A stretch of DNA of 64,000 bases from Streptomyces sp. R21 (lineage in GTDB: Bacteria > Actinomycetota > Actinomycetes > Streptomycetales > Streptomycetaceae): positions 1,612,001 through 1,676,000 of the forward strand of contig NZ_CP163435.1 in assembly GCF_041051975.1 (NCBI RefSeq), given 5' to 3'. The position numbers and the translations under genes were made by a program. This document shows, one piece after another, positions 6,563-28,158 of this stretch (positions are counted from its first letter, which is position 1; the number at the start of each line of letters is the position of its first letter). The notes under the pieces were generated by a model that was given only the letters and a program-made list of their open reading frames with translations, was not told the DNA's origin and did not search any database.

Positions 6563-7576
6563 TCACACCGACTTGGTCACGCGCAACAGTTGCCAGACCG
6601 CGCTCGCCCGCGCCCGCCCATGGAAGGCCAGGTATTCGGGAAGCACCAGGTCGGGGCCCCACTTCTCCTTGTAGGCCAGCTGGCCGGCGGCCGGGTACAC
6701 GGACTCCCCATGTGCGGCGAGGAAGCGCAGAAAGCGGCCGGTGAGCGCGCTGGCCGTGGCCGCCTCGTGCTCCTCGGACAGCCCGGTGAACGGGGTGAAC
6801 CCGAAGTGCAGCCACTGTGCACCCTCGGCCCGAAGCGTATCCAGCGCCCGCACGTTGACCGCTTCCAGCAGGCCGGGCACACCGCCCGGCACCCGGCGGC
6901 TCAGATCGTGCAGCCACCCGGAGCGGGTGCCGTACGCGGGGACGTACGAGATGTAGGCGACGACCCGCCCCTCGACACGGCCCACGAAGAGCCGGCGTTC
7001 GGCCTGCGCCGGGCCGCCCAATTCGCCGATGAGGAACTCGATCTCCTTCACATGGCGCCCCTTGGCCCGCAGCCACTCCCGGTCGACCGCGCCCACCTCG
7101 TCGCTCAGCTCACCGAGTTCCGCCTCACACACCTCCAGGCCGCCGCGCCGGGCCCGGGAGATCTTGTTGCGCAGCTTCACGAAGCGCGAGCCCTTGAGAG
7201 TGAACTCGGGCAGGTGGAGGGCGTAGGAGCTGCCGATCTGGTTCACCGTGAATCCCGAGCGGGCGTAGAGGTCGGCGTCGGCGCGCTGGAGTTGCACGGC
7301 GGCGACCTTGCGGCGGTTCTCACGCGCGAATTCCAGGAAGGCGCCCAGAAGTTCGGGGCGGTCCGGCTCTGCGGCGAAGGGGCCGCCGAATTGGATCAGA
7401 TGACGGCCCGCCCTGCGGAACACCACCACACCGAGGGTTCCGGGCCGGGTGAAGTACTCGTTCCCCGAGTTGAGGGCGAGGAACGCGCTGGGATTCTCCG
7501 CACAGGCGCGCAGCGCGAACAGGACCGTGTCGTACGCGGTCGTCCGCGATGTGACCGTCTCCCGGGCCATTGACAT
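6563..7576 (-). CDS. VlmA-like aminoacyl-tRNA-dependent transferase (LPG-synthase C-terminal/GNAT fold)
   Basis: A soluble 337-residue DUF2156 protein, the fold of the catalytic C-terminal half of MprF lysyl-phosphatidylglycerol synthases. It lacks the membrane half. Family-typical stretches are GTLGVVVFRRAGRHLIQFGGP, YVPAYGTRSGWLHDLSRR and LHFGFTPFTGLSEEHEA. In valanimycin biosynthesis the comparable protein VlmA moves serine from seryl-tRNA onto the alkylhydroxylamine. All other azoxy core families lie next door, so the same role is inferred. ATG 7576 has GGGGGA six bases before it. It is divergent from the biosynthetic operon and convergent with the SARP. A general lipid-aminoacylating role is less likely without membrane segments. 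Confidence 0.8.
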   Translation of the reverse strand: MSMARETVTSRTTAYDTVLFALRACAENPSAFLALNSGNEYFTRPGTLGVVVFRRAGRHLIQFGGPFAAEPDRPELLGAFLEFARENRRKVAAVQLQRADADLYARSGFTVNQIGSSYALHLPEFTLKGSRFVKLRNKISRARRGGLEVCEAELGELSDEVGAVDREWLRAKGRHVKEIEFLIGELGGPAQAERRLFVGRVEGRVVAYISYVPAYGTRSGWLHDLSRRVPGGVPGLLEAVNVRALDTLRAEGAQWLHFGFTPFTGLSEEHEAATASALTGRFLRFLAAHGESVYPAAGQLAYKEKWGPDLVLPEYLAFHGRARASAVWQLLRVTKSV

Positions 7577-7767
7577 TTACCGTCCCCCTGTCGTCCGCCC
7601 ACTCCCCAACCTTGCGCACGGTCCTTCGATGCCGCTGAAACGCCCGTCTCCGTCCCGTGTCAGGACCTTCTCAGCGCCGGCTGCGAGTTTGTCGAAACCA
7701 ACGTTCGACCCATGCTCAAGTACACCGTCCGGATCAATTCCCGGGCGGAAGGAAAACGGGGGCCGGT
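7577..7767. promoter_or_regulatory. Divergent promoter region of the azoxy cluster
   Basis: This 191-bp gap separates the divergent VlmA-like gene and the ALDH-led operon and must hold both promoters. A pair of imperfect heptamers, TCGAAAC (7691-7697) and TCGACCC (7704-7710), resembles SARP half-sites. Their 13-bp spacing is not the usual 11 or 22, so the assignment is weak. Confidence 0.4.
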
Positions 7768-9438
7768 GTGACCGGAATGCAGGCGAAGACGCGTGCTTCG
7801 CTTGGGGCAGGTGAAGTGAAACTCGGTGCGGGGGCGCGGACTTACGGCTCGTACATCGACGGGAAGAACATCGCGGAAGACCAGTGGGTGTACGTCGTCG
7901 ACGCGGCCGCGCTGCTGGACGACGCGTTCAGCAGCCTGACGCTCAAGCGCAAGCTGGAGAAGGGATACGTGCCGGCACGGGAGTTGCCGCCCTCGATCGT
8001 CGGGCGGGTCGCGAAGGCGGGCCCCCAGACGGTGCAACTGGCCCTGGAGGCGGCCGCGGAGGCCGCGCCCGAGTGGGGCGCCACACCGCTGGACGTCCGG
8101 CTCGACCGGATGTGTGCGCTGCTGCACCGCCGGATCGCCGAACGGGCCGACGAGATCGAGGAGATCCTGGTCCAGGAGGGTCACCCGCGGGTGCTCGCCC
8201 GCTGGCAGGTCTCCGGCATGCTGGAGTGCTGGGGTCCCGAGTCCGTCGGTTTCTATCATGCGCAACTGCACCAGGAGTTCCGGCACGGCGCCCGGGAGAT
8301 CTCCGTGCGCCGCAGGCCGGACGGTGTGGTCTGCCTGAACCCGCCGCAGAACGCCCCGATGGCCAGTGCCCTGCTCGGCGTGCACGCGATCTTCGCGGGC
8401 AACGCCCTGGTCGTACGCGCCCCACGAAGCGGTCCGTTGGGTGTCATGTACGCACTGCAGGAGCTGGTGGCCCCGGTGCTGGCGGAAGTGGGGGCTCCGC
8501 CCGGCACTCTCGGGGTGGTCTGCGGCGATCCCGGTCCGATGCTCAATGCCTGGCTGGCGAGTCCGCTCGTCGACGACATCATGTACTTCGGCAGCAGCGA
8601 GGCCGGGATCCGCTTCCAGGAGCGGTGCGTGGCCGCCGCGAAGAAGCCGATCCTCGAACTCGCCGGCAACGACGTGGTGACCGTCTGGAAGGACGCCGAC
8701 GTCGAACTGGCCGCCGAGGCGCTGACCGAGGGCTTCTTCGGCTCGGGCCAGCTGTGCATGATCCCCAACCAGGTGCTGGTCCACCCCGATGTGGCCGACC
8801 GGCTCCTGGAGGAGCTGATCCGGCAGACGCGGCGCATCCGGCCCGGACACCCGGGCGACGAGGGCGTACTGCTCACACCGGTGCTGCGCAACGAGAAGTT
8901 CTTCTCCTGCCTCGACGAGGCGCTGCTGCACGGCGCCGAGCTCGTCTGCGGCGGCCATGCGATGCGGGTCGACGGCACCCGGGACGGCGCCGGCATCTTC
9001 CTGGAGCCCACCGTCGTGCTGGTCCGCGGCCTGACCGACGCCCGGCGGATGACGGCCGTACGCCATGAGACGTTCTTCCCGCTGCTGCCGGTGATCGTCG
9101 CCGAACCGGACGACGACGAACGGCTGTTGAAGCGGTTCATCGGCTTCGTCAACAGCAACGGCTACGGTCTGCGCAACTCGCTGTGGGCCTGCGACCGCAC
9201 GGTGATCGACCGGTTCGTCGACCGCGTCACCGAGGGCGGGCTGCTGAAGGTCAACGACTCCCACATCGGCTTCCTGCCCTATCTGCCCTCGCACGGTGGC
9301 ACCGGTCTGACCGGCGGCGTGTTCGGGGAGGCCAACTACCCGACCCTGCGCACCACCCATGTGCAGGGCGTGAGCGTGGCACCGGCCGGAATCCGCCCCC
9401 GCGACGCCGTCTTCGGCACGGGGCGAAGGTCTGCCTGA
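7768..9438 (+). CDS. Aldehyde dehydrogenase-family oxidoreductase of the azoxy cluster
   Basis: A complete ALDH-fold enzyme. With a GTG start at 7768 (GGGGG five bases upstream) it has 556 residues. The catalytic glutamate lies in ILELAGND (about E297) and the catalytic cysteine in FGSGQLCMIPNQ (about C330), with family-typical spacing. It leads an operon with an N-hydroxylase, an aminotransferase and N-N-forming enzymes. Two readings are possible: it reduces an activated acyl group to the aldehyde that the aminotransferase then aminates, or it oxidises an aldehyde. The first fits alkylamine supply in alkyl-azoxy pathways. An N-terminal extension of about 40 residues relative to many ALDHs makes the exact start uncertain; ATG 7777 is an alternative. 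Confidence 0.8.
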   Translation: MTGMQAKTRASLGAGEVKLGAGARTYGSYIDGKNIAEDQWVYVVDAAALLDDAFSSLTLKRKLEKGYVPARELPPSIVGRVAKAGPQTVQLALEAAAEAAPEWGATPLDVRLDRMCALLHRRIAERADEIEEILVQEGHPRVLARWQVSGMLECWGPESVGFYHAQLHQEFRHGAREISVRRRPDGVVCLNPPQNAPMASALLGVHAIFAGNALVVRAPRSGPLGVMYALQELVAPVLAEVGAPPGTLGVVCGDPGPMLNAWLASPLVDDIMYFGSSEAGIRFQERCVAAAKKPILELAGNDVVTVWKDADVELAAEALTEGFFGSGQLCMIPNQVLVHPDVADRLLEELIRQTRRIRPGHPGDEGVLLTPVLRNEKFFSCLDEALLHGAELVCGGHAMRVDGTRDGAGIFLEPTVVLVRGLTDARRMTAVRHETFFPLLPVIVAEPDDDERLLKRFIGFVNSNGYGLRNSLWACDRTVIDRFVDRVTEGGLLKVNDSHIGFLPYLPSHGGTGLTGGVFGEANYPTLRTTHVQGVSVAPAGIRPRDAVFGTGRRSA

Positions 9439-9550
9439 CACACCGGGCGAAGGCCTGCCCCCTACGGCGCCCGATGGCTGATCCGGCCTGGCCCACCAGA
9501 GATCCAACATGCCTCAGACACACGCGAGTCACGAGAGTTCGAGGACATTC

Positions 9551-10687
9551 ATGCGTTCCATGCACCATGCCCGGGGGATCTGCGAGTCGTTCCTCCCCGG
9601 CCTGCTCGACAAACTCGAATTGATACCACTGGCGGAAAGGGAGGCGCCGGGCAGTCCGGCGCTCGACCACTTCCGGGCCTGTGGCGGCCCGGGGCTTGTC
9701 ATTCCGAAGACCTACCAGGGCGGCGGCGCCGACCCACTCCAGGCGCTCGCCGTCGTCCGCGCGGTCGGCGCGGTGTCGCCGTCGCTGGCCGTGGCGACGA
9801 CCATGCACCACTTCTCCGTCGCCACCCTGTTCACCCTCGCCGACAGTGTCAAGAGCAGCGGCATGGAGTGGGCGCTGCTCGAAGGCATCGCGGAGCAGCG
9901 GCTGTTGGTGGCCTCCGGCTTCGCCGAGGGCCGGCCGGGGCAGGGCATTCTCGCGCCGACGGTGCAGGCCCGGCCGGTGGACGGCGGCTACCTGGTGAGC
10001 GGCAGCAAGAAGCCGTGCAGCCTGTCCGCTTCCATGGACCTGCTGACGGCGAGCGTGGCGCTGCCCACCGAGGGCGACGGCACGGAACTGGCCGTGCTGC
10101 TGCTGCCACGGCTCACCGAGGGCATCAGCGTCCACCCGTTCTGGAAGAGCTGGGCACTGGCCGGGGCGGAGAGCGACGAGGTGCGACTGTCCCATGTCTT
10201 CGTCGACGAGCAGCTGTTGATGCGCACCGCGGCGGCCGATCCCGGTGAGCTGGACGAACTGCAGACGGTGGGCTTCCTCTGGTTCGAGCTGCTGATCTCC
10301 GCCTGCTACCTGGGCGCGGTCAGCGCTCTGGTGGAGCGGGCACTGGCCCGGGAACGCGGCAGTGTGCCGGAGCGCGCGGCACTGGCGACCCGGCTCGAAG
10401 CGGCGCAACTGCTCCTGGAGAACGTGGCCCGCATGCTGCGCGACGGCGAGACCGGCAACGAGGCGCTCGCCAAGACGCTGGTGGCCCGCTACGCCGTACA
10501 GGACGCCCTCGGCGACGCGGTGCCCCGAGCGGTCGAGATGCTCGGCGGCATGGCCTTCGTCACGTCGTCCGAGGTCGCCTACCTCGCCGCCGTCTCGCAC
10601 GCACTCGCCTTCCATCCTCCGTCCCGGGCGAGCTTCGCCGCCCCGTTCCTGGAGCACGTGGCGGGGCAGCCGCTGCGGCTGGCGTGA
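9551..10687 (+). CDS. Acyl-CoA dehydrogenase-fold flavin N-hydroxylase (VlmH-like)
   Basis: About 378 residues with the acyl-CoA dehydrogenase fold: LVIPKTYQGGGADPLQALAV in the N-terminal helical domain, GGYLVSGSKKPCSLS in the beta domain, and a C-terminal helical bundle. Two-component flavin monooxygenases of this fold include isobutylamine N-hydroxylase VlmH, which uses FADH2 from a separate reductase. A flavin-reductase gene lies 2.3 kb downstream in the same operon, supporting N-hydroxylation of an alkylamine over beta-oxidation. ATG 9551 has GAGG before it; an ATG at 9509 would add 14 residues with a poorer site. Confidence 0.75.
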   Translation: MRSMHHARGICESFLPGLLDKLELIPLAEREAPGSPALDHFRACGGPGLVIPKTYQGGGADPLQALAVVRAVGAVSPSLAVATTMHHFSVATLFTLADSVKSSGMEWALLEGIAEQRLLVASGFAEGRPGQGILAPTVQARPVDGGYLVSGSKKPCSLSASMDLLTASVALPTEGDGTELAVLLLPRLTEGISVHPFWKSWALAGAESDEVRLSHVFVDEQLLMRTAAADPGELDELQTVGFLWFELLISACYLGAVSALVERALARERGSVPERAALATRLEAAQLLLENVARMLRDGETGNEALAKTLVARYAVQDALGDAVPRAVEMLGGMAFVTSSEVAYLAAVSHALAFHPPSRASFAAPFLEHVAGQPLRLA

Positions 10688-10699: not shown

Positions 10700-11959
10700 A
10701 TGACACTGGCACCGCCCGAGACGACCCGCGAGGCACTCGGCCGCCTGTACCGGACCCGGCTGAGCAAAGGCCGCGCGACCCTGGGCGAGATGTTTGGCGG
10801 CCACGTAGAAATCGCCTCCCAGGGGGCGTGGGTCACCACATCCGATGGCAGTCGTTTCCTCAATTGCGGCGGCTACGGCGTCTTCCTGACCGGCGCCCGG
10901 CACCCCACCGTCCTGCGGTACGTGACCGAACAACTGCACACCCACCCGGTGGCCACCCGCCTCTTCCTGGAACCGCAGGCCGCGCTGGCCGCCGACGAAC
11001 TGGTGGCAGTGGCGCCGCCGGGCCTGGAGCGCGTGCACTTCGCGGGTTCCGGAGCCGAGGCCGTGGAGGCCGCGATCAAGGTGGCCCGCACCCGGGGCAG
11101 GACCCGGCTCGTCGCGATGGCCGACGGCTACCACGGCAAGACGATGGGCGCCCTGAGCCTCACCGGCAGGGACGTCTTCCAGGCGCCCTTCCGCCCTCTG
11201 CTGCCCGACACGACCCACATCCCGTACGGGGAGGTGGAGCCGTTGCGCGAGGTGCTGGCCGCCGCTCCCGGCGAGGCCTGCGTCTTCGTCGAGCCGGTGC
11301 AGGGCGAGGCCGGGGTGGTCGTCCCGCCGCCCGGCTATCTGCGGGCCGTGGCCGACCTCTGCCGGGAGTACGGCGCGCTGCTCGTCCTCGACGAGATCCA
11401 GACGGGTCTGGGGCGGCTCGGCTCCTGGTGGGGCGCGGACGCCGAGGGCATCTCCCCGGACCTGCTGCTGACCGGCAAGGGGCTCGGGGGCGGGGTCGTC
11501 CCCGTCTCGGCGCTGCTGGCCACCCCGGAGGCGTACGCGACCTTCGACCGCGACCCGTATCTGCACACGTCGACGTTCTCGGGCGCCCCACTCGCCATGG
11601 CCGCCGTGCGGGGCGCCCTGGCGGCCCTCCACGACGACGAACTCATCGCACGAGCACGGGTGTTGGGCGAGGAGATCCTCAACGTACTGCGCCGGATCGT
11701 CCGCGGGCACTACGGCGCCGCGGTACGGGAGGTGCGCGGCCGGGGTCTGCTGCTCGGCATCGAGTTCGCGGATCCGGGCCCCGCGGGCGACCTGCTCATC
11801 GAGCTGATCCAGCACGGGGTGATAGCCAACCACTCCCTCAACTCGCATCTGGTGCTGCGCCTGACCCCGCCCGCCGTACTCACCCGCGGCGATCTCGACT
11901 TCCTCTACGAAGCGCTCGACCGGGCCTGCCGTGCGCAGTCCGCCCGCTATGGAAGGTGA
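10700..11959 (+). CDS. Class III PLP aminotransferase
   Basis: A 419-residue omega-aminotransferase of the acetylornithine/4-aminobutyrate type. The PLP phosphate site is in FAGSGAEAVEAAIK, the ring-binding Asp in LVLDEIQTG (D231), and the Schiff-base Lys in LLTGKGLGGG (K260). It follows the N-hydroxylase by 12 bp and precedes the SRPBCC gene by 9 bp, so it is co-transcribed. It probably converts the aldehyde made by the ALDH-family enzyme to the primary alkylamine that is N-hydroxylated next. This differs from valanimycin, where the amine comes from valine by decarboxylation. Confidence 0.85.
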   Translation: MTLAPPETTREALGRLYRTRLSKGRATLGEMFGGHVEIASQGAWVTTSDGSRFLNCGGYGVFLTGARHPTVLRYVTEQLHTHPVATRLFLEPQAALAADELVAVAPPGLERVHFAGSGAEAVEAAIKVARTRGRTRLVAMADGYHGKTMGALSLTGRDVFQAPFRPLLPDTTHIPYGEVEPLREVLAAAPGEACVFVEPVQGEAGVVVPPPGYLRAVADLCREYGALLVLDEIQTGLGRLGSWWGADAEGISPDLLLTGKGLGGGVVPVSALLATPEAYATFDRDPYLHTSTFSGAPLAMAAVRGALAALHDDELIARARVLGEEILNVLRRIVRGHYGAAVREVRGRGLLLGIEFADPGPAGDLLIELIQHGVIANHSLNSHLVLRLTPPAVLTRGDLDFLYEALDRACRAQSARYGR

Positions 11960-11968: not shown

Positions 11969-12466
11969 ATGCGAAACGCACAACTGACCGTACGAGCAGC
12001 GGGCGTCGAAGCCGACGCCGGATACGCGCGCATCACCGACTTCGCCCGCTACCCCGAACTGTCACCAGTGGTCCGTTCCGTGATGGTCCGTCAACTTGGT
12101 GGCGACGAGGAGCATAGTGACTGGGAGGTGTTCTTCCGCAACGGCATCCTGCGCTGGACGGAGGCCGACCGGTTCGATGCGGGGCGCCGGTTGATCACCT
12201 TCCGCCAACTCCACGGCGACTTCGAGGAGTTCACCGGCAGCTGGTCCGTCCGCCAGGACGGTGACGGCTGTCTGATCGACTTCGCCGCCGAGTTCGACTT
12301 CGGGATACCGAGCCTGGCGGGCATCCTCGACCCGGTCGCCGAGCGGGTGCTCAAGGAGACCATCGCGGCGGTGCTGGCGGGGCTGTTCGACAGTTCCGAA
12401 GTCGTGCCGCGGTCGACGACGTCCTCGCAACCCCCGGTGCGAGCAGCACAGACGGTGGTCGTCTGA
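11969..12466 (+). CDS. SRPBCC/polyketide cyclase-like protein
   Basis: A 165-residue START/SRPBCC-fold protein (DFARYPELSPVVRSVMV, then DWEVFFRNGILRWTEADRF and a long C-terminal helix). The fold makes a hydrophobic cavity used by cyclases, aromatases and lipid carriers. Its stop codon overlaps the start of the membrane protein by one base, so the two are translationally coupled. Being tied to the N-N bond-forming enzymes, it may bind the alkyl intermediate or assist rearrangement. That role is inference only. Confidence 0.7.
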   Translation: MRNAQLTVRAAGVEADAGYARITDFARYPELSPVVRSVMVRQLGGDEEHSDWEVFFRNGILRWTEADRFDAGRRLITFRQLHGDFEEFTGSWSVRQDGDGCLIDFAAEFDFGIPSLAGILDPVAERVLKETIAAVLAGLFDSSEVVPRSTTSSQPPVRAAQTVVV

Positions 12467-12954
12467 TGGACGCGAAGAACCTCTTCGAGACGCCCGTCAC
12501 CTACCGGCTGATCCGCCTGGAGTACGCGCTCGGTCTGGTCGTCGCGTCCGCGTTCTTCCTCGCCCATGCCGACGGGGTCCGCTGGCCGGCGGCGATCGCG
12601 CTGTTCGTCTACATCGACCTGATCGGCTACATCCCCGGCGCGATCGTCCACCATCACGCCCGCGGGGCACCCATCTCCCGCACGTACTACGTGCTCTACA
12701 ACGTCATGCACAGCCTGGTCACCCAGACGCTGGTGGCGCTCGCCTGGGTCTGGCTGTCCGGCGCGGAGTGGGCGCTGCTCGCCCTGCCGATCCATCTCTT
12801 CGGCGACCGGGCGCTGTTCGGCAATTTCCTCAAGCCGTTCGGCCTGGCCTTCGAGCCCGCGGCGGATCCGGCGTACGAGCGGTTCCGCCGGGAGTTCGCC
12901 GCAGGTGGCCGCCCGGCCCCGGTGGCCGAGATGCTCGACGCGAGGGTGACATGA
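12466..12954 (+). CDS. Small membrane metalloprotein, VlmO-like hydrazine synthase candidate
   Basis: A 162-residue integral membrane protein with about four hydrophobic segments. Candidate metal ligands lie at segment ends: H62-H63-H64 (GAIVHHHARG), H82, H110 in PIHLFGD, and acidic residues D51 and D114. In valanimycin biosynthesis a membrane-bound hydrazine synthase (VlmO) acts together with a diiron azoxy synthase (VlmB). The order membrane protein, flavin reductase, diiron protein in one operon supports the same pairing. I infer the family from context and residue pattern, not from an alignment. It overlaps the preceding gene by 1 nt and the next by 4 nt. Confidence 0.7.
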   Translation: MDAKNLFETPVTYRLIRLEYALGLVVASAFFLAHADGVRWPAAIALFVYIDLIGYIPGAIVHHHARGAPISRTYYVLYNVMHSLVTQTLVALAWVWLSGAEWALLALPIHLFGDRALFGNFLKPFGLAFEPAADPAYERFRREFAAGGRPAPVAEMLDARVT

Positions 12955-13463
12955 CCGACATGGCCACCGCGCCGCACCGGGATCGTACGGGCGTATGGCG
13001 ATCCGTGGCCGGCGTGTCGGTGCTGACGTGCGGTGCGGCCGGGCAGGCCCACGGGGTCACGGTGAGCACGCTGGCCGTGGCCTCGCTGCGGCCGCTCATG
13101 GTGTCGGTGGCGCTGCGCCGCGGGAGCCGGGGACTCTCGGCGCTGCTGCGCTGCGGACTGTTCGCGGCCAATGGCCTGTCCGACCGACAGGCGGGCCTGG
13201 CGCGGCACTTCGCCCGCTCCGACCGCGCCGACGGCTGGGACCGCCCGGGCTCCGCCGGCCTGTGCGACGGCCGCACCTCCTGCGGTGCACCCCTGCTGCG
13301 GGACACCGTCGGCTGGCTGGAGTGCCGTGTGGAGCGCACCATCGCGGTCGGCGACCACGAACTGGTGCTGGCCCGTGTCCTCGCGGCGCGGGCCGGCGCC
13401 GGCCCGCCCCTGCTGACCACCGCAGACCTCGCCCCTACAGGAGTCCACGATGCAGACGCATGA
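12951..13463 (+). CDS. Flavin reductase (VlmR-like partner of the N-hydroxylase)
   Basis: A 170-residue HpaC/SnaC-type flavin reductase with VWRSVAGVSVLTCGAAGQAHGVTVSTLAVASLRP split around the flavin site and GWLECRVERTIAVGDHELVLARV near the end. Enzymes of this type supply reduced FAD/FMN to two-component monooxygenases; VlmR does so for VlmH. The ATG at 12951 overlaps the previous stop (ATGA), and the gene overlaps the diiron protein by 14 nt. Both overlaps indicate tight translational coupling. Confidence 0.85.
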   Translation: MTDMATAPHRDRTGVWRSVAGVSVLTCGAAGQAHGVTVSTLAVASLRPLMVSVALRRGSRGLSALLRCGLFAANGLSDRQAGLARHFARSDRADGWDRPGSAGLCDGRTSCGAPLLRDTVGWLECRVERTIAVGDHELVLARVLAARAGAGPPLLTTADLAPTGVHDADA

Positions 13464-14427
13464 CCCCGCCACCCCTTCCGTATCGGCAGTTCCCGCCGAA
13501 GCCGACTGGGAGCGCGCGCCCTCGCTGGTCGACGGCGCGATGAATCTGGAGCTGACCGCCGCCTCCTGCGATCTGCGGTACTGGCTGCGCTCGGTCCCGA
13601 ACGGCACGCTGCGCGGCCAGGTCCTGGGCCACGATCCGGGCGTGCGCCCCCTCGACGTCACCCGCGAACCGGGACCGCTGCACCAGGCGCTCACCCAGGA
13701 GCTGGCCTTCCGCTCGATCGCCGAGGAGAAGGCCACGCGGGCGATCGCGCATCTGGTCGCGCTGGCCCCGAGCGTCGAGACGATGGAGTTCTACGCCACC
13801 CAGCTCATCGACGAGGCCCGGCACGCGATGGTCTTCCGCAATCACCTGCGCGCGCTCGGCGTCGAGACCACCCCCCAGGCGCTCGGACAGCTCGCGGGCA
13901 CCGACCGGAACGCGGTGCTGATCCCCCTCGAGGACCTCGGCCTCCATGTCCTCAGCTATCAGGGCGACTTCATCGGCGGTGTCGTCGTTCTGACCATCCT
14001 CGTCGAAGGTGTGCTGGCACCGGCGGCGGAACTCAGCGAGCGCAAGTGGCGGATCTTCGACCCGGCGGTCGCGGACATCGAGCGGGGCGCCGGCATCGAC
14101 GAGATACGCCACCTCAGTGTCGGCAGCTCCATCGCCCGCGACCATCTCCTGGCCCACCCCGAGGACAAGCCCCGCCTTCTCGAACTCGTCCAGCGGGGGC
14201 AGGCGTTGTGGAACGACCTGCCCGTGGCCGACATGGTGCTGCGCCGCGAGATCCTCTTCCAGGAAGGCCTGGACAAGCATGCCGGCCTGGTCGGCGACTA
14301 CGAGATCTGGCCGGGCCGGCGGTTGGTGGACACCACCGTCGAGGAGCGCATCGGGACCGCACTGGAGTGGTCCGAGACGATGCAGGTCCGGCGACTGGCG
14401 TACATGGGGCTCACGGACACGCCGTAG
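13450..14427 (+). CDS. Ferritin-like non-heme diiron oxygenase, VlmB-like azoxy synthase
   Basis: A 325-residue AurF/ferritin-like diiron protein. Two ExxH motifs are visible, EARH (E122/H125) and EIRH (E218/H221), plus candidate ligands at E92/E93 and E186. VlmB in valanimycin biosynthesis is a diiron azoxy synthase that oxidises a hydrazine through azo to azoxy. Co-occurrence with VlmO-, VlmH-, VlmR- and VlmA-like proteins is the main ground for assigning that reaction here. The ATG has AGGAG eight bases upstream, inside the end of the reductase gene. An arylamine N-oxygenase role (AurF-like) is the main alternative. Confidence 0.8.
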   Translation: MQTHDPATPSVSAVPAEADWERAPSLVDGAMNLELTAASCDLRYWLRSVPNGTLRGQVLGHDPGVRPLDVTREPGPLHQALTQELAFRSIAEEKATRAIAHLVALAPSVETMEFYATQLIDEARHAMVFRNHLRALGVETTPQALGQLAGTDRNAVLIPLEDLGLHVLSYQGDFIGGVVVLTILVEGVLAPAAELSERKWRIFDPAVADIERGAGIDEIRHLSVGSSIARDHLLAHPEDKPRLLELVQRGQALWNDLPVADMVLRREILFQEGLDKHAGLVGDYEIWPGRRLVDTTVEERIGTALEWSETMQVRRLAYMGLTDTP

Positions 14428-14500: not shown

Positions 14501-15238
14501 TCACCGTGCGACGGTGTCGACTCGGCGTGCGTGCCGTGTCAGCGCGCGGACGACCACGGACGCGGCCAGGGCATGACCCCGACTGTTCAGCCGACCGGGG
14601 TGCGGACCCCACAGACTCGCCAGGTCGAGCCCGTGCTGGTGGCTCATCAGGTTGATGTGCAGGGCTCCGTGATGAAGCGTCACCAGGCCGGTCCGCTCGA
14701 CCAGTTGTCGCTGGCGTGCACGTGTCTCCTCCCGCTGCCCCGCGTGCGGCGGGTCTGACGAGGCCCGCTCGAAGGGGGTGATCACCACGGCGTCGCGGTA
14801 GGTCCCGCTCTTCAACGAGTCGAGGATGCGGGAGAGTTCGACCTCCAGGGCGTCGGCGTCGAAGGCCGGTGCGCGCAGCTCGGGTCCGCCGCACGACACC
14901 AGCGCGAGGTCGCCGCGGAAGACGAGGGCGTCCGCCAGCTGCCGGGAGCGCACCTCGAAGAGGAGCAGGTCCCGTCGGCCGCGCGCGATGCGGCAGGCCG
15001 CGCCGGGGTGCGCCGAGCGGAGTGCGGCGGCGACCCGGTCGCTCCAGCTCACGGAGCGGTATCCGGGCACGGCGGCGGAGCGGGCGAGCCGCGCCTCGTG
15101 CTCGCCGAGGATCACCGCGCGCCGCCAGGGCGTGCCGGCCAGCAGGTCCGCGGCCTCACCCGGGCGCAGACAGTGGGGGTCATGGTCCTCCCCCGCCAGT
15201 AGCCCTGGCCTGGGCGGTGCCTCAGTGTCGTCGGTCAT
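14501..15238 (-). CDS. Degenerate SGNH/GDSL hydrolase-like protein
   Basis: A 245-residue protein whose C-terminal HPGRLNSRGHALAASVV resembles block V surroundings of SGNH hydrolases, and whose VILGEHEARLAR stands where GDS should be. The nucleophile Ser of block I is not evident (GEH replaces GDS), so esterase activity is doubtful. Its ATG at 15238 overlaps the stop of the MmgE/PrpD gene (ATGA), so it is the second gene of that minus-strand pair and probably belongs to the azoxy pathway. No reaction can be named. Confidence 0.6.
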   Translation of the reverse strand: MTDDTEAPPRPGLLAGEDHDPHCLRPGEAADLLAGTPWRRAVILGEHEARLARSAAVPGYRSVSWSDRVAAALRSAHPGAACRIARGRRDLLLFEVRSRQLADALVFRGDLALVSCGGPELRAPAFDADALEVELSRILDSLKSGTYRDAVVITPFERASSDPPHAGQREETRARQRQLVERTGLVTLHHGALHINLMSHQHGLDLASLWGPHPGRLNSRGHALAASVVVRALTRHARRVDTVAR

Positions 15239-17133
15239 CGTGCCCCCGCTGTCCGGTTGTGCAGGAGCCGGGCCCATGGCTCGGGCCGCTCGGTGCCCTC
15301 CGGCAGCCGTACCCGCACGGCCGTGTCACCGCTCTCCCGCGGGGTCCGGTCGAGTACGCCGAGCAGGTCGGAGGCATTGCGTCGCAGCAGATCCGCCAGC
15401 AGTGCGCGGTCCGCCGAGGCCAGGAGTTCGGCGACGGCCTCCGGGGCCACGGGGTCCAGCACCGGCGCACCCCCGGTCAGCACCTGACGTGCGGTGGCGG
15501 CCAACGCGGCTGCTTCCAGGGCCACTTCGGCGAGGGTCCGGTCGGGGACGGCGGCGCCCCGCAGATGGTCGTACGCTGCCTCCAGCGCGCTGGTGTCCAT
15601 CACCTTCTTCCGGATGTGGCGAGGGCGCCGCCTTCCGGGCCTCACCTCCTCCCGCTCGCCCTGCACCCCCGCGAGTGCGAGGGTGATCAGCCGCCGGGTC
15701 CCGGCGGGCCCGAGATCCGGCAACTCGCCGACCAGGTCGACGACTTCGGGATCGCCTCCGCAGCGCAGGAACTTCTCGCCCGTGAGTTCCGCGAGCGCGG
15801 CGTGATCCGCGCTGCCCACGGCCCCGACGGCCTCCGGCCGCTCCGCCCGCAGTTCCCGCCCGTCCCGCAGCCGTACGACGACCCGGGCGCCCAGCCGCTT
15901 CGTCGCCCACCGGAAGTCGGTCTCGGGGGCGAGCCACGGCGGGGGCAGGACGTCGGCCGCCCGCTCGTCGGCCGCCCGCACCCACGCCTCCGCCCGTTTC
16001 CCGGCCCGGCGCAGCGCCTGGCCCAGGGGCGCGGTGGCGAGCAGTGCGGCCCGGCTCAGTTCGGGGTCGTGGACGGTGCGCACCTTCGCCGCCAGCTCCC
16101 ATCGTTCGGGGCGCTCCACCGCGGGAGGCGCCAGGTCGGCGGGGAGCAGGGCGCCGGTGAGGAGGGCGGTGGCCACGTTGTACGGGAGGGAGAAGTTGAG
16201 CGCGGCGACACCGGAGCCGGGGCCGATGTCCGCCCCCCGTGCGGTCCGGTCGAGGCCGTGGGTGAAGAGGGAGCCCTCGACGACGACCTCCGCGATGTCG
16301 TCGGCGTCGATTCCCGCCGTGTGCAGGTCGACCGCGCAGTCGACGGCGGCGCTGGTGTACGCGCTGCCGGGGTGCACCTTGTAGGAGAGGGTCTCGGTGT
16401 GCCAGAGGGTGCCGAGTCCGGCGACGGCCTCCTCGGGCAGGGGCACCTCGGCAAACTGGTGCAGGAATCCCTGGGGGTGTTCCAGTACGTCGCCGGGTCC
16501 GCGCAGCCCCGCGTGCGCACCGTCGCAGGCGCTGAGCCCCGTCTGCAAGGGCGCGACCGCCGCGAACCCCTTGGCGTCGGTGGCGAGGAAGCCGCGGGCG
16601 AGGGGCCATGTCGGCACCGAGAAGGCGAGCCCGAGCGCGTCCGTCCAGGTCCCCGCGGGGGCCTCCTCCGCGCGCAGCCGTCCGGCGACCGCACCGGCGA
16701 GGTGGGTGTGTCCGGCGGCCTGGCCGCGGAAGGGGCCCAGGGTCGCGGCGGCGGTGATGCGGGCCGCCGTCTCGTTCGCGGCGAGGATCGCGGTGAGCAG
16801 CTGATGGCCGTCGAGGGCGAGCGGCGCCGCGTACGCCACGGGGACGGTGACGCAGGAGTGCGAGAGGTGTCCGGCGTACGCGGTGTCGTCGTAGTCGAGG
16901 CAGATGGCCGCCATCGCGAGCGAGACGGCGGCGCGCGCGGGGTCGTCGTGCAGCGGGCCGCCGTACGCCCGGACGATCCGACCGCCGAGCGGGTGCGCGT
17001 ATCCGGCGCGGGCGGCGGCGAGTTGGCTGAGGAGCTGGCACTTGAGGTGGGCGACGACACGGTCGGGGGCGTCGCCCAGCTCCATGTCGCCGGCCCAGGC
17101 GGCGAGTTGCCCGATGAGGGTGGGCCGGGTCAT
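15235..17133 (-). CDS. MmgE/PrpD-family dehydratase with C-terminal extension (VlmK-like)
   Basis: A 632-residue protein whose first ~500 residues are MmgE/PrpD (CLDYDDTAYAGHLSHSCVTV, LAANETAARITAAATLGPF, SYKVHPGSAYTSAAVDCAVD). In valanimycin biosynthesis VlmK, of this family, removes phosphate from the VlmJ-phosphorylated hydrate to make the acrylate double bond. A VlmJ-type kinase gene is 2.8 kb away. The protein is about 120-150 residues longer than usual. A basic linker (RPGRRRPRHIRKK) leads into a helical tail beginning MDTSALEAAY, whose own ATG (15600) has a purine-rich sequence before it; the tail may be a fused or separately started protein. The 262-bp gap on its 5' side holds its promoter. 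Confidence 0.8.
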   Translation of the reverse strand: MTRPTLIGQLAAWAGDMELGDAPDRVVAHLKCQLLSQLAAARAGYAHPLGGRIVRAYGGPLHDDPARAAVSLAMAAICLDYDDTAYAGHLSHSCVTVPVAYAAPLALDGHQLLTAILAANETAARITAAATLGPFRGQAAGHTHLAGAVAGRLRAEEAPAGTWTDALGLAFSVPTWPLARGFLATDAKGFAAVAPLQTGLSACDGAHAGLRGPGDVLEHPQGFLHQFAEVPLPEEAVAGLGTLWHTETLSYKVHPGSAYTSAAVDCAVDLHTAGIDADDIAEVVVEGSLFTHGLDRTARGADIGPGSGVAALNFSLPYNVATALLTGALLPADLAPPAVERPERWELAAKVRTVHDPELSRAALLATAPLGQALRRAGKRAEAWVRAADERAADVLPPPWLAPETDFRWATKRLGARVVVRLRDGRELRAERPEAVGAVGSADHAALAELTGEKFLRCGGDPEVVDLVGELPDLGPAGTRRLITLALAGVQGEREEVRPGRRRPRHIRKKVMDTSALEAAYDHLRGAAVPDRTLAEVALEAAALAATARQVLTGGAPVLDPVAPEAVAELLASADRALLADLLRRNASDLLGVLDRTPRESGDTAVRVRLPEGTERPEPWARLLHNRTAGAR

Positions 17134-17395: not shown

Positions 17396-19006
17396 TCACG
17401 CGCTCGCCTCCGCCGAGGCGTCGCGCTCCGCCGGGCCGGTCGCGGGCGCCTCGTACGCGTCCGCGACCCGGCCCGGCTTCCCCCGAAGGAGCACCAGCGC
17501 ACAGAGTCCTCCGATCAGCGTCCCAGCCGCCGCCACCTGCATCACCAGATGCATCCCGTCGACGAAGACGGGACCGACGGCGTCCTGTACCGACCGCCGC
17601 AGTTCGGCCGGCAGCGCGTCGGTGCGCGACAGATCGCCCCCGCTGAGGAGGTCGTACGCCTGTGCTCGCGCCGTCCGCGGCATGGCAACCGCGGACAGCG
17701 CGTCCGGCAGGCTGCCGCGCAGGTGCCGCAGCAGCAGTGCCCCGGCCAGCGCGACCCCGAAGACCGCGCCGACCTGGCGGAACGTGTTGGAGATCCCGGA
17801 CGCCGTGCCGGCCTGTTCGGCGGGGACCGAGCCAAGGAGCGCCACGGTCGCGGGCGCCCCGGTGAACGAGACACCGATGCCGAGCAGCGCCAACGCCCAC
17901 CAGTAGCCGCCGAAGCCGGTTCCGGCGTCGAGGACGGTCAGGCCGTACAGGCCGCCCGCGGAGCACAGCGAGCCGAACACGATGGGGCGGCGCGGACCGG
18001 CCCTGGACGCGACGACGCTCGCCGCGAACGAGGCGATCATGATCGGCACGGTCAGCGCGAGGAACCGTACGCCGGTCTGAACGCTGCTGAGCCCCTGCAC
18101 GGTCTGCAGGTGCAGCGTCAGCAGGAAGATCGCCGCGAACAGCCCGAACAGGCTGAGGAAGTTGACGGCTCCGGCTACCGCCACGACCGGCCTGCGGAAC
18201 AGGTGCAGCGGCAGCATCGGATCGGGCTGCCGCAGTTCCCAGGCCACGAATCCGGTCAGTGTCACGGCGGACACGGCGAAGGCGCCGAGGATGAGCGCGG
18301 AGCGCCAGCCCTCGGTGTTGCCCTCGATGAGCGCGTACGCGAGGGCCGCGATCGCGACGACGAACAGCAGCTGTCCCACGATGTCCAGACGCCGGGCGCG
18401 CGGCCCGTGGTTCTCGCTCAGCAGGCGGGACAGTACGACGGTGGCGAGCAGCCCGATGGGCACGTTGACCCAGAAGATGCTCTGCCAGCCGACCGAGTCG
18501 ACGAGCAGGCCGCCGACCACCGGTCCGGCGGAGAGTGCGAGTCCGCCGATGCCCGCCCAGATGCCGATCGCCCGGGCGCGCGCGACGGCCTCGGTGTACG
18601 TGGCGGAGACCAGCGCGAGCGACACCGGGATCATGATCGACCCGCAGACACCCTGGATCGCGCGCCCCACCAGCAGGACGCTCGTCGAGCCCGCCAGCGC
18701 GCACAGGACCGAGCTCAGCGTGAAGCCGATCAGCCCGCCCAGGAACAGCCGCTTGCGGCCGACGACGTCGCCGAGTGTGCCCGAGGTGAGCAGCAGACAG
18801 GCGAAGGCCAGCGCGTAGGCGTCGACGATCCACTGCAGCCCGGTGATGTCCGCGGAGAGATCCTGCTGGATGTCGGGCAGCGCCACATTCACGATCGTGG
18901 CGTCGAGGTACACCATGAACACGCCGAAGCAGACGAAGCCGAGCAGCAGCCCCTTGCGAGGGCCACGCGTGCCTCGGAGGTCATGGTGGTTTGTGGTGTC
19001 GCTCAT
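17396..19006 (-). CDS. DHA2-type MFS drug exporter
   Basis: About 536 residues with 14 predicted membrane segments. The signature DATIVNVALPDIQQDL lies in the first segment, followed by GTLGDVVGRKRLFLGG in the loop and GRAIQGVCGSIMIPVSLALV. This subfamily exports antibiotics and dyes by proton antiport. It lies inside the azoxy cluster and is divergent from a TetR across a region with two perfect TetR-type operators, so it is probably the export/self-resistance gene. ATG 19006 is chosen because GAGGA precedes it, and because an upstream start would overlap the operators. Confidence 0.9.
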   Translation of the reverse strand: MSDTTNHHDLRGTRGPRKGLLLGFVCFGVFMVYLDATIVNVALPDIQQDLSADITGLQWIVDAYALAFACLLLTSGTLGDVVGRKRLFLGGLIGFTLSSVLCALAGSTSVLLVGRAIQGVCGSIMIPVSLALVSATYTEAVARARAIGIWAGIGGLALSAGPVVGGLLVDSVGWQSIFWVNVPIGLLATVVLSRLLSENHGPRARRLDIVGQLLFVVAIAALAYALIEGNTEGWRSALILGAFAVSAVTLTGFVAWELRQPDPMLPLHLFRRPVVAVAGAVNFLSLFGLFAAIFLLTLHLQTVQGLSSVQTGVRFLALTVPIMIASFAASVVASRAGPRRPIVFGSLCSAGGLYGLTVLDAGTGFGGYWWALALLGIGVSFTGAPATVALLGSVPAEQAGTASGISNTFRQVGAVFGVALAGALLLRHLRGSLPDALSAVAMPRTARAQAYDLLSGGDLSRTDALPAELRRSVQDAVGPVFVDGMHLVMQVAAAGTLIGGLCALVLLRGKPGRVADAYEAPATGPAERDASAEASA

Positions 19007-19012
19007 CGCCGT

Positions 19013-19105
19013 CCTCACGTGAGGGGCCTGGCCGAACCGGTCGCTACGCGGGACCATAATGACCGACGGTCAGTCAGTCAACGCCGAGTGACCGACGGTC
19101 AGTCA
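19013..19105. promoter_or_regulatory. TetR operators in the exporter/TetR divergent promoter
   Basis: TGACCG-A-CGGTCA, a perfect 6-bp inverted repeat, occurs at 19060-19072 and 19089-19101. Each is followed by GTCA, giving a 17-bp direct repeat 29 bp apart. A separate 12-bp palindrome CCTCACGTGAGG lies at 19013-19024, next to the exporter ribosome-binding site. The arrangement is classic for a TetR repressing itself and a divergent exporter. Confidence 0.75.
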
Positions 19106-19130: not shown

Positions 19131-19757
19131 GTGGCCGCGATACGCACGACACCCCCGACAGCGCCGCGCCGGAAACGGGTGGCCAAGAGCCCCGAGGACC
19201 GCAGGGCGGCGCTCATCCGGGGTGCGGGCCGGGTCTTCCGCGAGAAGGGCTTCGCCGCCGCGACGGTCGCCGAACTGGCGGAGGCGGGTGAGGTCGCCAA
19301 GGGCACCTTCTACCTCTACTTCGACTCCAAGGACCATCTGCTGGGCGCCATGTGGGAGGAGTACGTCGACGGATTCCTGCGGTCCACCCAGGAGTTGCTG
19401 GAGACGGACGGGGACTGGTGGCCCACACTCGACCGGCTCATCCGCGCCCTGGTGGACCACGCCGTCGACAACGCCGCCCTGCACCGCATCGTGTACGGGT
19501 CGGCGAACGCGAAGGCGCTGGAGCTGTGCCGGACGTCCAACCAGCGTGTCGTGGACGTGATGGTCGCGTTCGTCCGACGCGGCGCCCGCGCCGGGGTGTT
19601 CCGTGCCTACGACCCGACTCTCGTCTGCCGGATGCTCTTCCACGCGGCCGACGGGCTCCTCGACGATCTGATCAGCCGGGGTGAGCAGGTCGATCCCGAG
19701 GTGATCGTGGCAGCCGTACGGGAGTTGACGCATCGAGGGCTGGGCGACACCGCCTGA
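19131..19757 (+). CDS. TetR-family repressor of the divergent exporter
   Basis: A 208-residue TetR protein. The N-terminal helix-turn-helix reads GRVFREKGFAAATVAELAEAGEVAKGTFYLYFDSKDHLL. The C-terminal ligand domain follows. The GTG at 19131 has AGAGGAG before it. It is divergent from the MFS exporter and separated from it by two copies of a palindromic operator. Such repressors usually release DNA on binding the exported compound or an intermediate, giving feed-forward export. The tRNA-like gene and kinase follow on the same strand. Confidence 0.9.
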   Translation: MAAIRTTPPTAPRRKRVAKSPEDRRAALIRGAGRVFREKGFAAATVAELAEAGEVAKGTFYLYFDSKDHLLGAMWEEYVDGFLRSTQELLETDGDWWPTLDRLIRALVDHAVDNAALHRIVYGSANAKALELCRTSNQRVVDVMVAFVRRGARAGVFRAYDPTLVCRMLFHAADGLLDDLISRGEQVDPEVIVAAVRELTHRGLGDTA

Positions 19758-19850
19758 CCCACCCACTCGAAACCGACGCGCGGGCGTCTCAGGACGATCT
19801 CATCGACATCTCAGCGGAGTTCGGCAGTCTCTCCGGCGCAAGGACATCCG

Positions 19851-19937
19851 GGAGAGGTGCCCGCAGCGGCCCAACGGGGTTCCGGCGTCAGCCGGATCGG
19901 GTGCAAGCCCACGCAGGTTCAAATCCTGCCCTCTCCG
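19851..19937 (+). tRNA. tRNA-Ser-like RNA gene with a non-canonical anticodon loop
   Basis: An 87-nt cloverleaf. The 7-bp acceptor GGAGAGG/CCTCTCC is perfect. The D arm is CCCG/CGGG with loop CAGCGGCCCAA, the long variable arm is GGG...CCC, and the T arm is GCAGG-TTCAAAT-CCTGC. The discriminator is G and CCA is not encoded. The long variable arm, G73 and D-loop sequence are those of bacterial tRNA-Ser. The anticodon arm is abnormal: the best stem (TCCGG/CCGGA, 19881-19885 with 19892-19896) leaves a 6-nt loop CGTCAG. In the standard register position 33 is C, not U, and the stem has a mismatch. It should not decode normally. It lies between the TetR and the kinase, in a cluster whose key step uses seryl-tRNA. 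Confidence 0.72.
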
Positions 19938-19970: not shown

Positions 19971-20909
19971 ATGAGCGACGTCCTCAAGTCCGGTCCAGAC
20001 GTCCTCAAGTCCGTTCTGGTGGTGGCCAATCCGGCCGCGGGATCGTGTACACCGGACGCGGTGGAGAAGACGGTCGGGCTGCTCTCCAAGGCGGCCGCGA
20101 CCGTGGAGCTGCGACTGACCGCCGGACCGGACCACGCCCGGACCCTCGCCCGCGAGGCCGTCTCCGCCGGCGCGGCCGACACGGTGGTGGCGATCGGCGG
20201 CGACGGTACGGCCCACGAGGTGATGACCGGGCTGATGGACGCGGGCGGCGACGCGGCCCTCCTCGCGCTCCCCTTCGGCACCGGCAACTCCTTCTACCGT
20301 GCGATCTGGTCGGACCGGCCGTGGCGGGCGGCGCTGGACGCCGTCCTCGCCACGCCGTATGTGCGGCGGATCGATCTGGCCGCGGTCGCGGAGACCGGCG
20401 GCCTCGCGCTCCTGGGCGCGTCCTCGGGGCTGGCCGCACAGACCCTGGTCACCGCCCGCGAGGTCGCCGGCACCGGCCGGGACCGGTACCAGGAGGCGGT
20501 GACACGCGCGGTGGCCGACGGCTTCCGCCCCTATCCGGGCCGGGTCACCGTCGACGGCGTCGAGGTGCACCGCGGCCCGACAGTGTGTGCGAACGTCGGC
20601 GGCGGCCGTCATCGCGCGGGCCGCTTCCTGCTCCTGCCGCACTCCGCCCTGGACGACGGCCTGCTCGATGTCTGCGTGGCCGGCCCCGGCCTGCCCCTGC
20701 CCGAACTCCTCCAACTCGCCCGCGACGGAGCCCATGTGGGCCGTAAGGGGGTGGTGTACGCCCGAGGCCGCCGGATCGTCGTGGAACGCACCGACGGCCG
20801 ACCCGTCCTCTTCGAGTACGACGGCGATCTCGCCCCGAAGGCCGCCTCCCGCTACACGCTGGACGTCGTGCCGCGGGCCCTCACGGTCCTGGCACCGCCC
20901 CGGTCCTGA
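19971..20909 (+). CDS. Diacylglycerol kinase-family lipid/small-molecule kinase (VlmJ-like)
   Basis: A 312-residue DAGK-catalytic-domain protein. The nucleotide-binding core VVAIGGDGTAHEVMTGL is followed by LPFGTGNSF, both hallmarks of the family. VlmJ of valanimycin is of this family and phosphorylates the alcohol of valanimycin hydrate so that VlmK can eliminate it. A VlmK-like gene is in the same cluster. The ATG at 19971 has GGGAGGG seven bases upstream. Extension of the frame upstream to 19857 would read through the tRNA-like gene and is rejected. The last 29 bp overlap the 3' end of the convergent siderophore decarboxylase gene. Confidence 0.85.
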   Translation: MSDVLKSGPDVLKSVLVVANPAAGSCTPDAVEKTVGLLSKAAATVELRLTAGPDHARTLAREAVSAGAADTVVAIGGDGTAHEVMTGLMDAGGDAALLALPFGTGNSFYRAIWSDRPWRAALDAVLATPYVRRIDLAAVAETGGLALLGASSGLAAQTLVTAREVAGTGRDRYQEAVTRAVADGFRPYPGRVTVDGVEVHRGPTVCANVGGGRHRAGRFLLLPHSALDDGLLDVCVAGPGLPLPELLQLARDGAHVGRKGVVYARGRRIVVERTDGRPVLFEYDGDLAPKAASRYTLDVVPRALTVLAPPRS

Positions 20910-28142: not shown

Positions 28143-28158
28143 CCCCGGTAAGCGGGAG

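What the first reader, a model, noticed from the sequence alone, without database searches (positions are those of the whole stretch)
19851..19937. A tRNA-Ser-like gene with a broken anticodon loop inside an azoxy cluster: candidate dedicated seryl donor
Seen: acceptor, D, variable and T arms are intact with perfect pairing, and discriminator G73, D loop and long variable arm are of tRNA-Ser type. The anticodon arm gives a 6-nt loop, or C33 with a mismatched stem, so normal decoding is unlikely. It lies 33 bp before a VlmJ-like kinase. Established: VlmA of valanimycin transfers serine from seryl-tRNA, and SerRS recognises tRNA-Ser by the variable arm rather than the anticodon. Precedent: Staphylococcus has tRNA-Gly isoacceptors kept for cell-wall synthesis. 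Inference: this RNA is charged by housekeeping SerRS, escapes the ribosome and feeds the VlmA-like enzyme.
Basis: partly seen in the sequence, partly recalled or inferred. Interest (0 to 1): 0.93.

Follow-up and report, generated by a model that had tools for sequence, protein, structure and literature searches.

The report
Anticodon-less serine tRNA for antibiotic synthesis
Inside a gene cluster that resembles the one for the antibiotic valanimycin, this bacterium carries a small RNA shaped like a serine tRNA but without a normal anticodon loop; in 86 of 87 sampled relatives that carry such an RNA, the cluster's amino-acid-transferring enzyme is also present, so the RNA is likely a dedicated donor that would hand serine to antibiotic synthesis instead of to the ribosome.

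Summary
The 87-nt RNA (19851-19937, +) keeps the serine-tRNA acceptor, D, variable and T arms and G73; its anticodon arm is a hairpin capped by GUCA. I extracted 86 copies from same-genus genomes: the tRNA body is nearly invariant, the anticodon and variable arms change freely but stay paired, and 72 of 76 unique copies cannot form a standard anticodon arm. In 392 same-genus genomes, 51 carry the RNA and all 51 carry a VlmA homologue; it was not detected in the 310 VlmA-negative ones. RNA presence follows the VlmA tree (3 changes, shuffled 25.2). Within 10 kb of VlmA, SerRS occurs in 18 of 51 RNA+ and 0 of 31 RNA- genomes. 63 of 68 copies follow an 11-bp TCAG-type direct repeat like a SARP box. 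All 76 have A51-U63; six ordinary tRNA-Ser have G51-C63. Best reading: an anticodon-less tRNA-Ser charged by SerRS, excluded from translation, and used by VlmA-type transferases as seryl donor. Expression, charging and transfer are untested. Ten full-text searches showed no report of it.

The parts
19851..19937 (+). anticodon-less tRNA-Ser-like RNA (87 nt, to discriminator G73; followed by CGA, so CCA is not encoded)
19851..19857 (+). acceptor stem 5' strand GGAGAGG, pairs with 19930-19936
   Evidence: 6 of 7 pairs invariant in 76 unique copies, the seventh GC:70, AU:5, unpaired:1
19860..19878 (+). D arm CCCG-CAGCGGCCCAA-CGGG
   Evidence: fourth pair GC:70, AU:6
19879..19898 (+). replaced anticodon arm: G-U-UCCGGC-GUCA-GCCGGA-U-C hairpin
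19899..19910 (+). long variable arm GGGU-GCAA-GCCC
19913..19929 (+). T arm GCAGG-UUCAAAU-CCUGC with A51-U63
19787..19814 (+). three TCTCA repeats of 11-bp period upstream of the RNA, SARP-box type
   Evidence: 1 match in the window, 0 expected
7660..7674 (+). TCAG-N7-TCAG between the divergent VlmA-like and aldehyde dehydrogenase genes
   Evidence: its place is suggestive, not significant alone
19971..20909 (+). VlmJ-like diacylglycerol-kinase-family kinase
   Evidence: DAGK_cat and YegS_C
6563..7576 (-). VlmA-like aminoacyl-tRNA-dependent transferase (predicted)
   Evidence: LPG_synthase_C 3.6e-65; a profile of 19 relatives matches solved alanyl- and lysyl-tRNA-dependent PG synthases
5515..6339 (+). 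SARP-family regulator
   Evidence: AfsR/SARP models, 138 and 120 bits, both under their cut-offs
7657..9438 (+). aldehyde dehydrogenase (real start probably further in, about 7816)
9509..10687 (+). VlmH-like protein of the acyl-CoA-dehydrogenase fold
   Evidence: function by cluster context
12466..12954 (+). VlmO-like hypothetical protein
   Evidence: no Pfam hit; name by cluster position
13450..14427 (+). VlmB-like protein
   Evidence: no Pfam hit; its 52% match in L064 lies where NZ_CP108456.1 has a 'VlmB-like protein'
15235..17133 (-). VlmK-like MmgE/PrpD-family protein
   Evidence: the homologue in NZ_CP108456.1 is named MmgE/PrpD family protein
10700..11959 (+). class-III aminotransferase
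17396..19057 (-). MFS efflux transporter
19131..19757 (+). TetR-family regulator ending 93 nt before the RNA

Best explanation
The gene encodes an anticodon-less tRNA-Ser-like RNA that is predicted to be charged with serine by SerRS and likely serves as the dedicated seryl donor of the cluster's VlmA-like transferase, while it would be kept out of translation. Shown by sequence: a serine-type acceptor, D, variable and T body with G73; an anticodon arm replaced by a capped hairpin in nearly all relatives; co-occurrence with VlmA genes in 86 of 87 RNA-bearing genomes tested; and a SARP-type repeat upstream. Inferred: (1) the cluster's SARP turns the RNA on together with the pathway; (2) SerRS, the single housekeeping enzyme in this genome or a cluster-encoded copy in others, charges it through G73 and the variable arm, which do not involve the anticodon; (3) without a 7-nt anticodon loop it cannot decode, and A51-U63 weakens EF-Tu binding; (4) VlmA passes the serine to a hydroxylamine acceptor; the VlmJ and VlmK homologues would then phosphorylate and eliminate the serine hydroxyl, as in valanimycin.
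For: Family: 86 copies in 61 loci, G73 in 86 of 86 (the search pattern left position 73 free). Covariation: 97.5% of cells paired, 50 double-change cells against 5.8 in shuffles (0 of 500); further acceptor changes in Nocardia aurantia, GGAAGGG/CCCUUCC. No canonical anticodon arm in 72 of 76 unique copies, present in 4 of 4 housekeeping tRNA-Ser of this genome. Loops of 64 unique arms: 3 nt 11, 4 nt 31, 5 nt 18, 6 nt 3, 7 nt 1. Association: of 392 same-genus genomes 51 RNA+ and VlmA+, 31 VlmA+ only, 310 neither (Fisher 1e-42); 19 of 19 further same-genus RNA+ genomes VlmA+; genus g14: 9 of 9 RNA+ genomes, of 61 sampled; eight more RNA+ genomes: 7 VlmA+. VlmA tree: 3 label changes, shuffled 25.2. 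Serine markers within 10 kb of VlmA: SerRS 18 of 51 RNA+ and 0 of 31 RNA-, VlmK 12 and 1, VlmJ 9 and 1 (the last p 0.08). Upstream repeat: 63 of 68 copies, background 0.9%; a review passage says VlmI binds heptamer repeats upstream of vlmJ and vlmA-vlmH. T stem A51-U63 in 76 of 76, G51-C63 in six tRNA-Ser. Serine identity is described as anticodon-independent and variable-arm-based (passages).
Against: No expression, charging or transfer data. Thirty-one VlmA+ genomes lack the RNA, so VlmA-type chemistry does not always need it; two of these (G073, G086) have VlmJ and VlmK homologues in their fetched stretches. Four genomes (G033, G117, G146, G301) show RNA copies but none in the stretch fetched around VlmA (up to 10 kb each side, about 2 kb on one side in G146), so cis linkage is not strict. 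Four of 76 copies could form a canonical arm. One VlmA-negative genome (G428) has a degenerate copy. The repeat is missing upstream in 5 of 68 copies and in 2 of 10 checked later, among them Nocardia. The Fisher values ignore relatedness. G18-G19, lost in the staphylococcal cell-wall tRNA-Gly, are kept here. Genome searches score a capped number of candidates (10 per genome, 5), so absences are 'not detected'.
Confidence: 0.8

Rival explanations
1. Regulatory or protective RNA: it is charged with serine but acts as a sensor, decoy or sink, for example to buffer SerRS against the pathway or to regulate cluster expression, and VlmA uses ordinary seryl-tRNA.
For: The azodyrecin paper proposes that its VlmA homologue draws alanyl-tRNA from the cellular pool (passages), and 31 VlmA+ genomes do without the RNA.
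Against: RNA presence follows the VlmA tree and goes with a SerRS near VlmA. Most extra copies read are intact and repeat-preceded, as expected for supply rather than for one regulatory switch.
Confidence: 0.1
2. Carrier RNA: serine is not only donated but modified while esterified to this RNA, so the RNA is a scaffold for several steps.
For: A dedicated body, with a private SerRS near VlmA in 18 of 51 RNA+ genomes, would suit a scaffold.
Against: The described VlmA product is a free O-seryl-hydroxylamine (passages), and VlmJ and VlmK act on a late intermediate (passages).
Confidence: 0.05
3. Decaying or selfish tRNA gene copies that hitchhike in antibiotic clusters, on chromosome arms or on plasmids.
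For: Copies are dispersed, 15 matches in each of three genomes, on plasmids, and a few are visibly degenerate (G428; second L044 copy).
Against: Nearly invariant body and compensatory changes, conserved upstream repeat, and no detection in 310 VlmA-negative genomes.
Confidence: 0.04
4. Unusual decoding tRNA, for example a frameshift suppressor used by a cluster gene.
For: ARAGORN assigns ordinary anticodons to some copies.
Against: The assigned anticodons differ between close copies, even within one tandem array (L024), and the loop sequence and length vary freely.
Confidence: 0.01

Closest known systems
Valanimycin VlmA/VlmL system (seryl-tRNA-dependent azoxy biosynthesis)
   Same: VlmA-like transferase with VlmH, VlmB, VlmJ and VlmK homologues; direct repeats upstream of the RNA-VlmJ unit and near VlmA, where VlmI is said to bind in valanimycin; a VlmL-type SerRS near VlmA in 18 of 51 RNA+ genomes
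   Different: The passages read on valanimycin speak of seryl-tRNA and mention no dedicated RNA; no SerRS gene lies in this cluster (one in the whole genome, outside it).
Staphylococcus aureus tRNA-Gly isoacceptors for cell-wall bridges
   Same: a dedicated aminoacyl donor outside translation; A51-U63 in the T stem
   Different: those keep an anticodon arm (recalled) and have lost G18-G19, whereas here G18-G19 are kept and the anticodon loop is gone; serine type, not glycine
tmRNA
   Same: tRNA-like body without an anticodon that is aminoacylated (abstracts)
   Different: no mRNA-like part, serine type, and no evidence of ribosome use
tRNA-Sec and allo-tRNAs
   Same: SerRS-chargeable class with a long variable arm (tRNA-Sec: passages; allo-tRNA: recalled)
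   Different: longer acceptor stems (9/3 for allo-tRNA from an abstract; the rest recalled) and they decode; here 7/5 bp and no anticodon loop

Membership tests
Decoding tRNA-Ser | 7-bp acceptor, 5-bp T stem, long variable arm, G73 | tested here: met
Decoding tRNA-Ser | 5-bp anticodon stem with 7-nt loop and U33 | tested here: not met
   not formed by the window RNA; 72 of 76 unique copies cannot form it, 4 of 4 housekeeping tRNA-Ser of this genome do
tRNA-Sec (RF01852) | gathering score and extended acceptor branch | tested here: not met
   26.8 bits, cut-off 47; 7+5 bp
tmRNA | tRNA-like ends joined to a tag-encoding part | tested here: not met
   ARAGORN, which also seeks tmRNA, calls none in the window; the RNA is 87 nt
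allo-tRNA | 8/4 or 9/3 acceptor branch | tested here: not met
   7/5; the definition is partly recalled, 9/3 from an abstract
S. aureus-type dedicated cell-wall tRNA-Gly | weak-EF-Tu pair A51-U63 | tested here: met
   76 of 76 unique copies; meaning from passages
S. aureus-type dedicated cell-wall tRNA-Gly | G18-G19 replaced | tested here: not met
   GG kept (G18 invariant, G19 at least 90%)
Dedicated seryl donor of VlmA | serylation and transfer by VlmA | not testable with these tools
   needs biochemistry
att-site remnant of an integrative element | 3' part duplicated from a resident tRNA gene | tested here: not met
   the 25-nt 3' end has one place in the own genome at up to 3 mismatches, this one; no integrase among the 10 proteins, a wider search was not made
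VlmA-type azoxy cluster | VlmA, VlmH and VlmB homologues together | tested here: met
   the names VlmH, VlmO and VlmK rest on fold and cluster context, not on comparison with the valanimycin proteins themselves

The most novel reading that the evidence does not exclude
A new class of RNA cofactor: tRNA-Ser freed from the genetic code by replacing its anticodon loop with a capped hairpin, co-evolving with VlmA-type transferases and, in many species, with a private SerRS, switched on by the pathway's SARP, and amplified to as many as 15 gene copies across chromosome and plasmids to supply antibiotic synthesis with serine.
Probability: 0.7. Interest if true: 0.96.

Novelty: categorically new. Interest (0 to 1): 0.94.

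Why it matters
How aminoacyl-tRNA is diverted from translation into natural products is an open question; a 2014 review states that for valanimycin the mechanism is unknown (PMC4052509, passages). A dedicated anticodon-less donor would be a direct, testable answer, would add an RNA gene to the definition of a biosynthetic cluster (cluster transfers that leave it out might then fail), and would provide natural SerRS/RNA/transferase sets that are separate from the genetic code.

Tried and rejected
att-site remnant: rejected, the 3' end occurs once in the own genome at up to 3 mismatches. Ordinary tRNA-Ser: rejected on the anticodon arm. Orphan copies as VlmA-independent genes: rejected when the RNA+ genomes of the genus sample proved VlmA+. 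The first DNA search scored only two candidates per genome, so I repeated it with a covariance model (ten per genome). Set aside before counting: six genomes with only short BLAST fragments, none recovered by the model (G024, G149, G238, G239, G283, G366), and three with 58-62-bit hits (G047, G105, G184), which ARAGORN calls tRNA-Ser(UGA); in G281 a weak 60-bit copy was left unclassified. For the upstream-repeat count 18 of 86 copies were left out: later copies of a tandem array or fewer than 130 nt upstream. The first marker counts pooled all fetched stretches of a genome and so gave RNA+ genomes more sequence: SerRS 20 of 51 and 0 of 31, VlmJ 18 and 2, VlmK 16 and 2; the fair recount within 10 kb of VlmA is. 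One of the 20 SerRS (G372, 41%) resembles the housekeeping enzyme (74% in the core) and drops out there. The published SARP study of valanimycin is not held, so its vlmJ promoter could not be compared. A first structure string was mis-registered by one column and corrected. No structure prediction, protein-database search or viral-contig scan was made. In the 80 best VlmA loci of named genomes, 20 have the RNA within the DNA held, up to 10 kb each side; that sample mixes RNA+ and RNA- VlmA groups, and in this window too the RNA lies more than 10 kb from VlmA.

Full report
What is there. The window lies in a 10.0-Mb genome at contig 1, 1612001-1676000. At 19851-19937 (+) an 87-nt RNA folds as a cloverleaf with a 7-bp acceptor stem, a 4-bp D stem with 11-nt loop, a long variable arm, a 5-bp T stem with UUCAAAU loop, and G73. 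ARAGORN reports 'tRNA-???', Rfam's tRNA family does not reach its cut-off, and the best weak match is tRNA-Sec, 26.8 bits against 47. The place of the anticodon arm is taken by UCCGGC-GUCA-GCCGGA. CCA is not encoded. The RNA lies 93 nt after a TetR gene and 33 nt before a DAGK/VlmJ-like kinase.

The cluster. The neighbouring genes form a valanimycin-like set: SARP regulator, VlmA-like LPG_synthase_C protein (3.6e-65), aldehyde dehydrogenase, VlmH-like protein of acyl-CoA-dehydrogenase fold, class-III aminotransferase, VlmB-like protein, MmgE/PrpD (VlmK-like) and DAGK (VlmJ-like). The valanimycin proteins themselves were not compared; the names follow fold and context. A profile of 19 VlmA relatives matches solved alanyl- and lysyl-tRNA-dependent phosphatidylglycerol synthases. 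In NZ_CP108456.1 the RNA sits between a DUF2156 (VlmA) gene and a diacylglycerol-kinase gene, with a gene named 'VlmB-like protein' downstream.

A family. A BLAST search of 392 same-genus genomes found matches in 53, six of them short fragments only. From 60 fetched neighbourhoods plus the window I extracted 86 copies, 76 unique, with a sequence pattern; more diverged copies would be missed. All 86 have G73; 18 encode CCA. The acceptor, D and T arms are nearly invariant, in part because the pattern asked for the T arm and acceptor, while the anticodon and variable arms differ in sequence and length and still pair. On the alignment, 97.5% of cells pair, with 50 cells changed on both sides against 5.8 in shuffles (0 of 500), and one-column slides drop pairing to 54-60%. 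The alignment was made without the structure, but the structure was read from these sequences. Of 64 unique arms the predicted loops are 4 nt in 31, 5 in 18, 3 in 11, 6 in 3 and 7 in 1; own halves fold at -9.2 kcal/mol on average, swapped halves at -5.5, with 11.9% of swaps as stable as the own mean. A strict test for 5 bp, a 7-nt loop and U33 is passed by 4 of 76 copies (6 with one mismatch allowed) and by 4 of 4 housekeeping tRNA-Ser. The genome has four tRNA-Ser among the long tRNAs fetched: GCU, UGA, CGA, GGA.

Association with VlmA. A covariance model scores ordinary tRNA-Ser of this genome at 41-51 bits and family members at 70 or more. Over the same 392 genomes, 54 have a hit at E 1e-9; in 51 the best hit is over 80 bits, and the three others are ordinary tRNA-Ser(UGA). 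VlmA (E 1e-30) is in 82 of 392. All 51 RNA+ genomes are VlmA+; 31 VlmA+ genomes lack the RNA; 310 have neither (Fisher 1e-42, relatedness ignored). In 31 of 51 the RNA is within 1 kb of a VlmA or VlmJ match, median 162 nt; in 13 more it lies 2-27 kb away on the same contig (coordinates). The other seven: G102, G113 and G285 have RNA and VlmA on different contigs; G033, G117, G146 and G301 have no RNA in the stretch fetched around VlmA. G117 has two contigs, with VlmA on the first and the listed RNAs on the second, of 343 kb. In a family-level sample, partly overlapping the first, 43 of 394 genomes have a hit, in 8 of 17 genera. Its 19 same-genus RNA+ genomes that were new all have VlmA. In genus g14, 9 of 61 have the RNA and all 9 are among the 11 with VlmA. 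Of its eight remaining RNA+ genomes seven are VlmA+, one of them with VlmA in two pieces (G454); the eighth, G428, has one copy with broken pairing. Together that is 86 of 87 RNA+ genomes. The RNA also lies 8 nt after the VlmA stop codon in Nocardia aurantia, with compensatory acceptor changes, and near VlmA in a Streptosporangiaceae genome. Ten Streptomyces plasmid records hold it.

Co-evolution. On a tree of 82 VlmA proteins the RNA label needs 3 changes against 25.2 in shuffles, 0 of 500 as low. G302 has two VlmA genes, and the one in the tree is not the RNA-adjacent one; G073 and G336 are RNA- rows inside an RNA+ group. Within 10 kb of VlmA, a VlmL-type SerRS occurs in 18 of 51 RNA+ and 0 of 31 RNA- genomes (p 6e-5), VlmK in 12 and 1 (p 0.014), VlmJ in 9 and 1 (p 0.08), VlmB in 32 and 12 (p 0.04); VlmH and VlmO are commoner in the RNA- set, 29 and 31 of 31 against 28 and 28 of 51. 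SerRS and VlmK, which imply serine, thus go with the RNA; VlmJ points the same way but not significantly in this count. In eight VlmL-type SerRS the N-terminal domain scores 24-38 bits against 89 for the housekeeping enzyme, while the core scores are alike; a ninth (L098) is short at its N-terminus and closer to the housekeeping enzyme. This hints at altered RNA recognition but is not proof. This genome has one SerRS.

Regulation. 63 of 68 copies with enough upstream DNA have TCA[GT]-N7-TCA[GT] within 130 nt, against 0.9% of random windows; spacings of TCAG pairs are 11 bp (107) and 22 bp (49), all others 2 or fewer. Of ten copies in named genomes checked later, eight have it; Nocardia and Kitasatospora griseola do not. 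In the window three TCTCA repeats stand at 19787-19813, the only match with up to one mismatch, 0 expected. A review passage says that VlmI, the valanimycin SARP, binds three heptamer repeats upstream of vlmJ and vlmA-vlmH (PMC10972967, passages). Many dispersed copies share the repeats, so they look like a regulon rather than debris; binding was not tested. Copy number reaches 15 in three genomes, with tandem arrays of up to five.

Mechanism. Serine identity in tRNA is described as anticodon-independent, resting on the variable arm with G73, and G1-C72 and G2-C71 as conserved in bacteria (PMC9976931, passages); all are present. All 76 unique copies have A51-U63, a pair linked to weak EF-Tu binding in the staphylococcal cell-wall tRNA-Gly (PMC4052509, passages), while six ordinary tRNA-Ser have G51-C63 (two of them read by eye). 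I infer charging by SerRS, exclusion from translation and use by VlmA. None of these three steps was tested.

Literature. Ten full-text searches showed no listing that I recognised as describing such an RNA; most papers of subscription journals are not held. I read passages only, of PMC9379638, PMC12945691, PMC4052509, PMC9437257, PMC7609411, PMC10972967, PMC4810233, PMC9976931 and PMC11705231.

Noticed in passing
window 40527-40601 (-): tRNA-Pro(GGG) identical to copies at G000:C1:1598299 and 1696449; a fourth place, 5368133, scores the same but was not read.
   Followed up: partly
G000:C1:82890, 161319, 403234, 1432243, 9886672 (L112 is one): five dispersed low-scoring tRNA-like genes (about 40 bits), the one fetched called tRNA-Gly(UCC); possibly another dispersed tRNA-like family.
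   Followed up: no
window 47583-47674 (-): ARAGORN tRNA-Leu(CAG) that does not reach the Rfam tRNA cut-off; possibly another unusual class-II tRNA.
   Followed up: no
window about 20881-29184: genes directly downstream look like a siderophore set (decarboxylase, IucA/C-like, ATP-grasp, binding protein), judged by eye from translations.
   Followed up: no
L291 1501-1592 (G428): degenerate copy of the RNA with an 11-bp TCAG repeat upstream in a VlmA-negative genome; looks like decay after loss of the cluster.
   Followed up: yes
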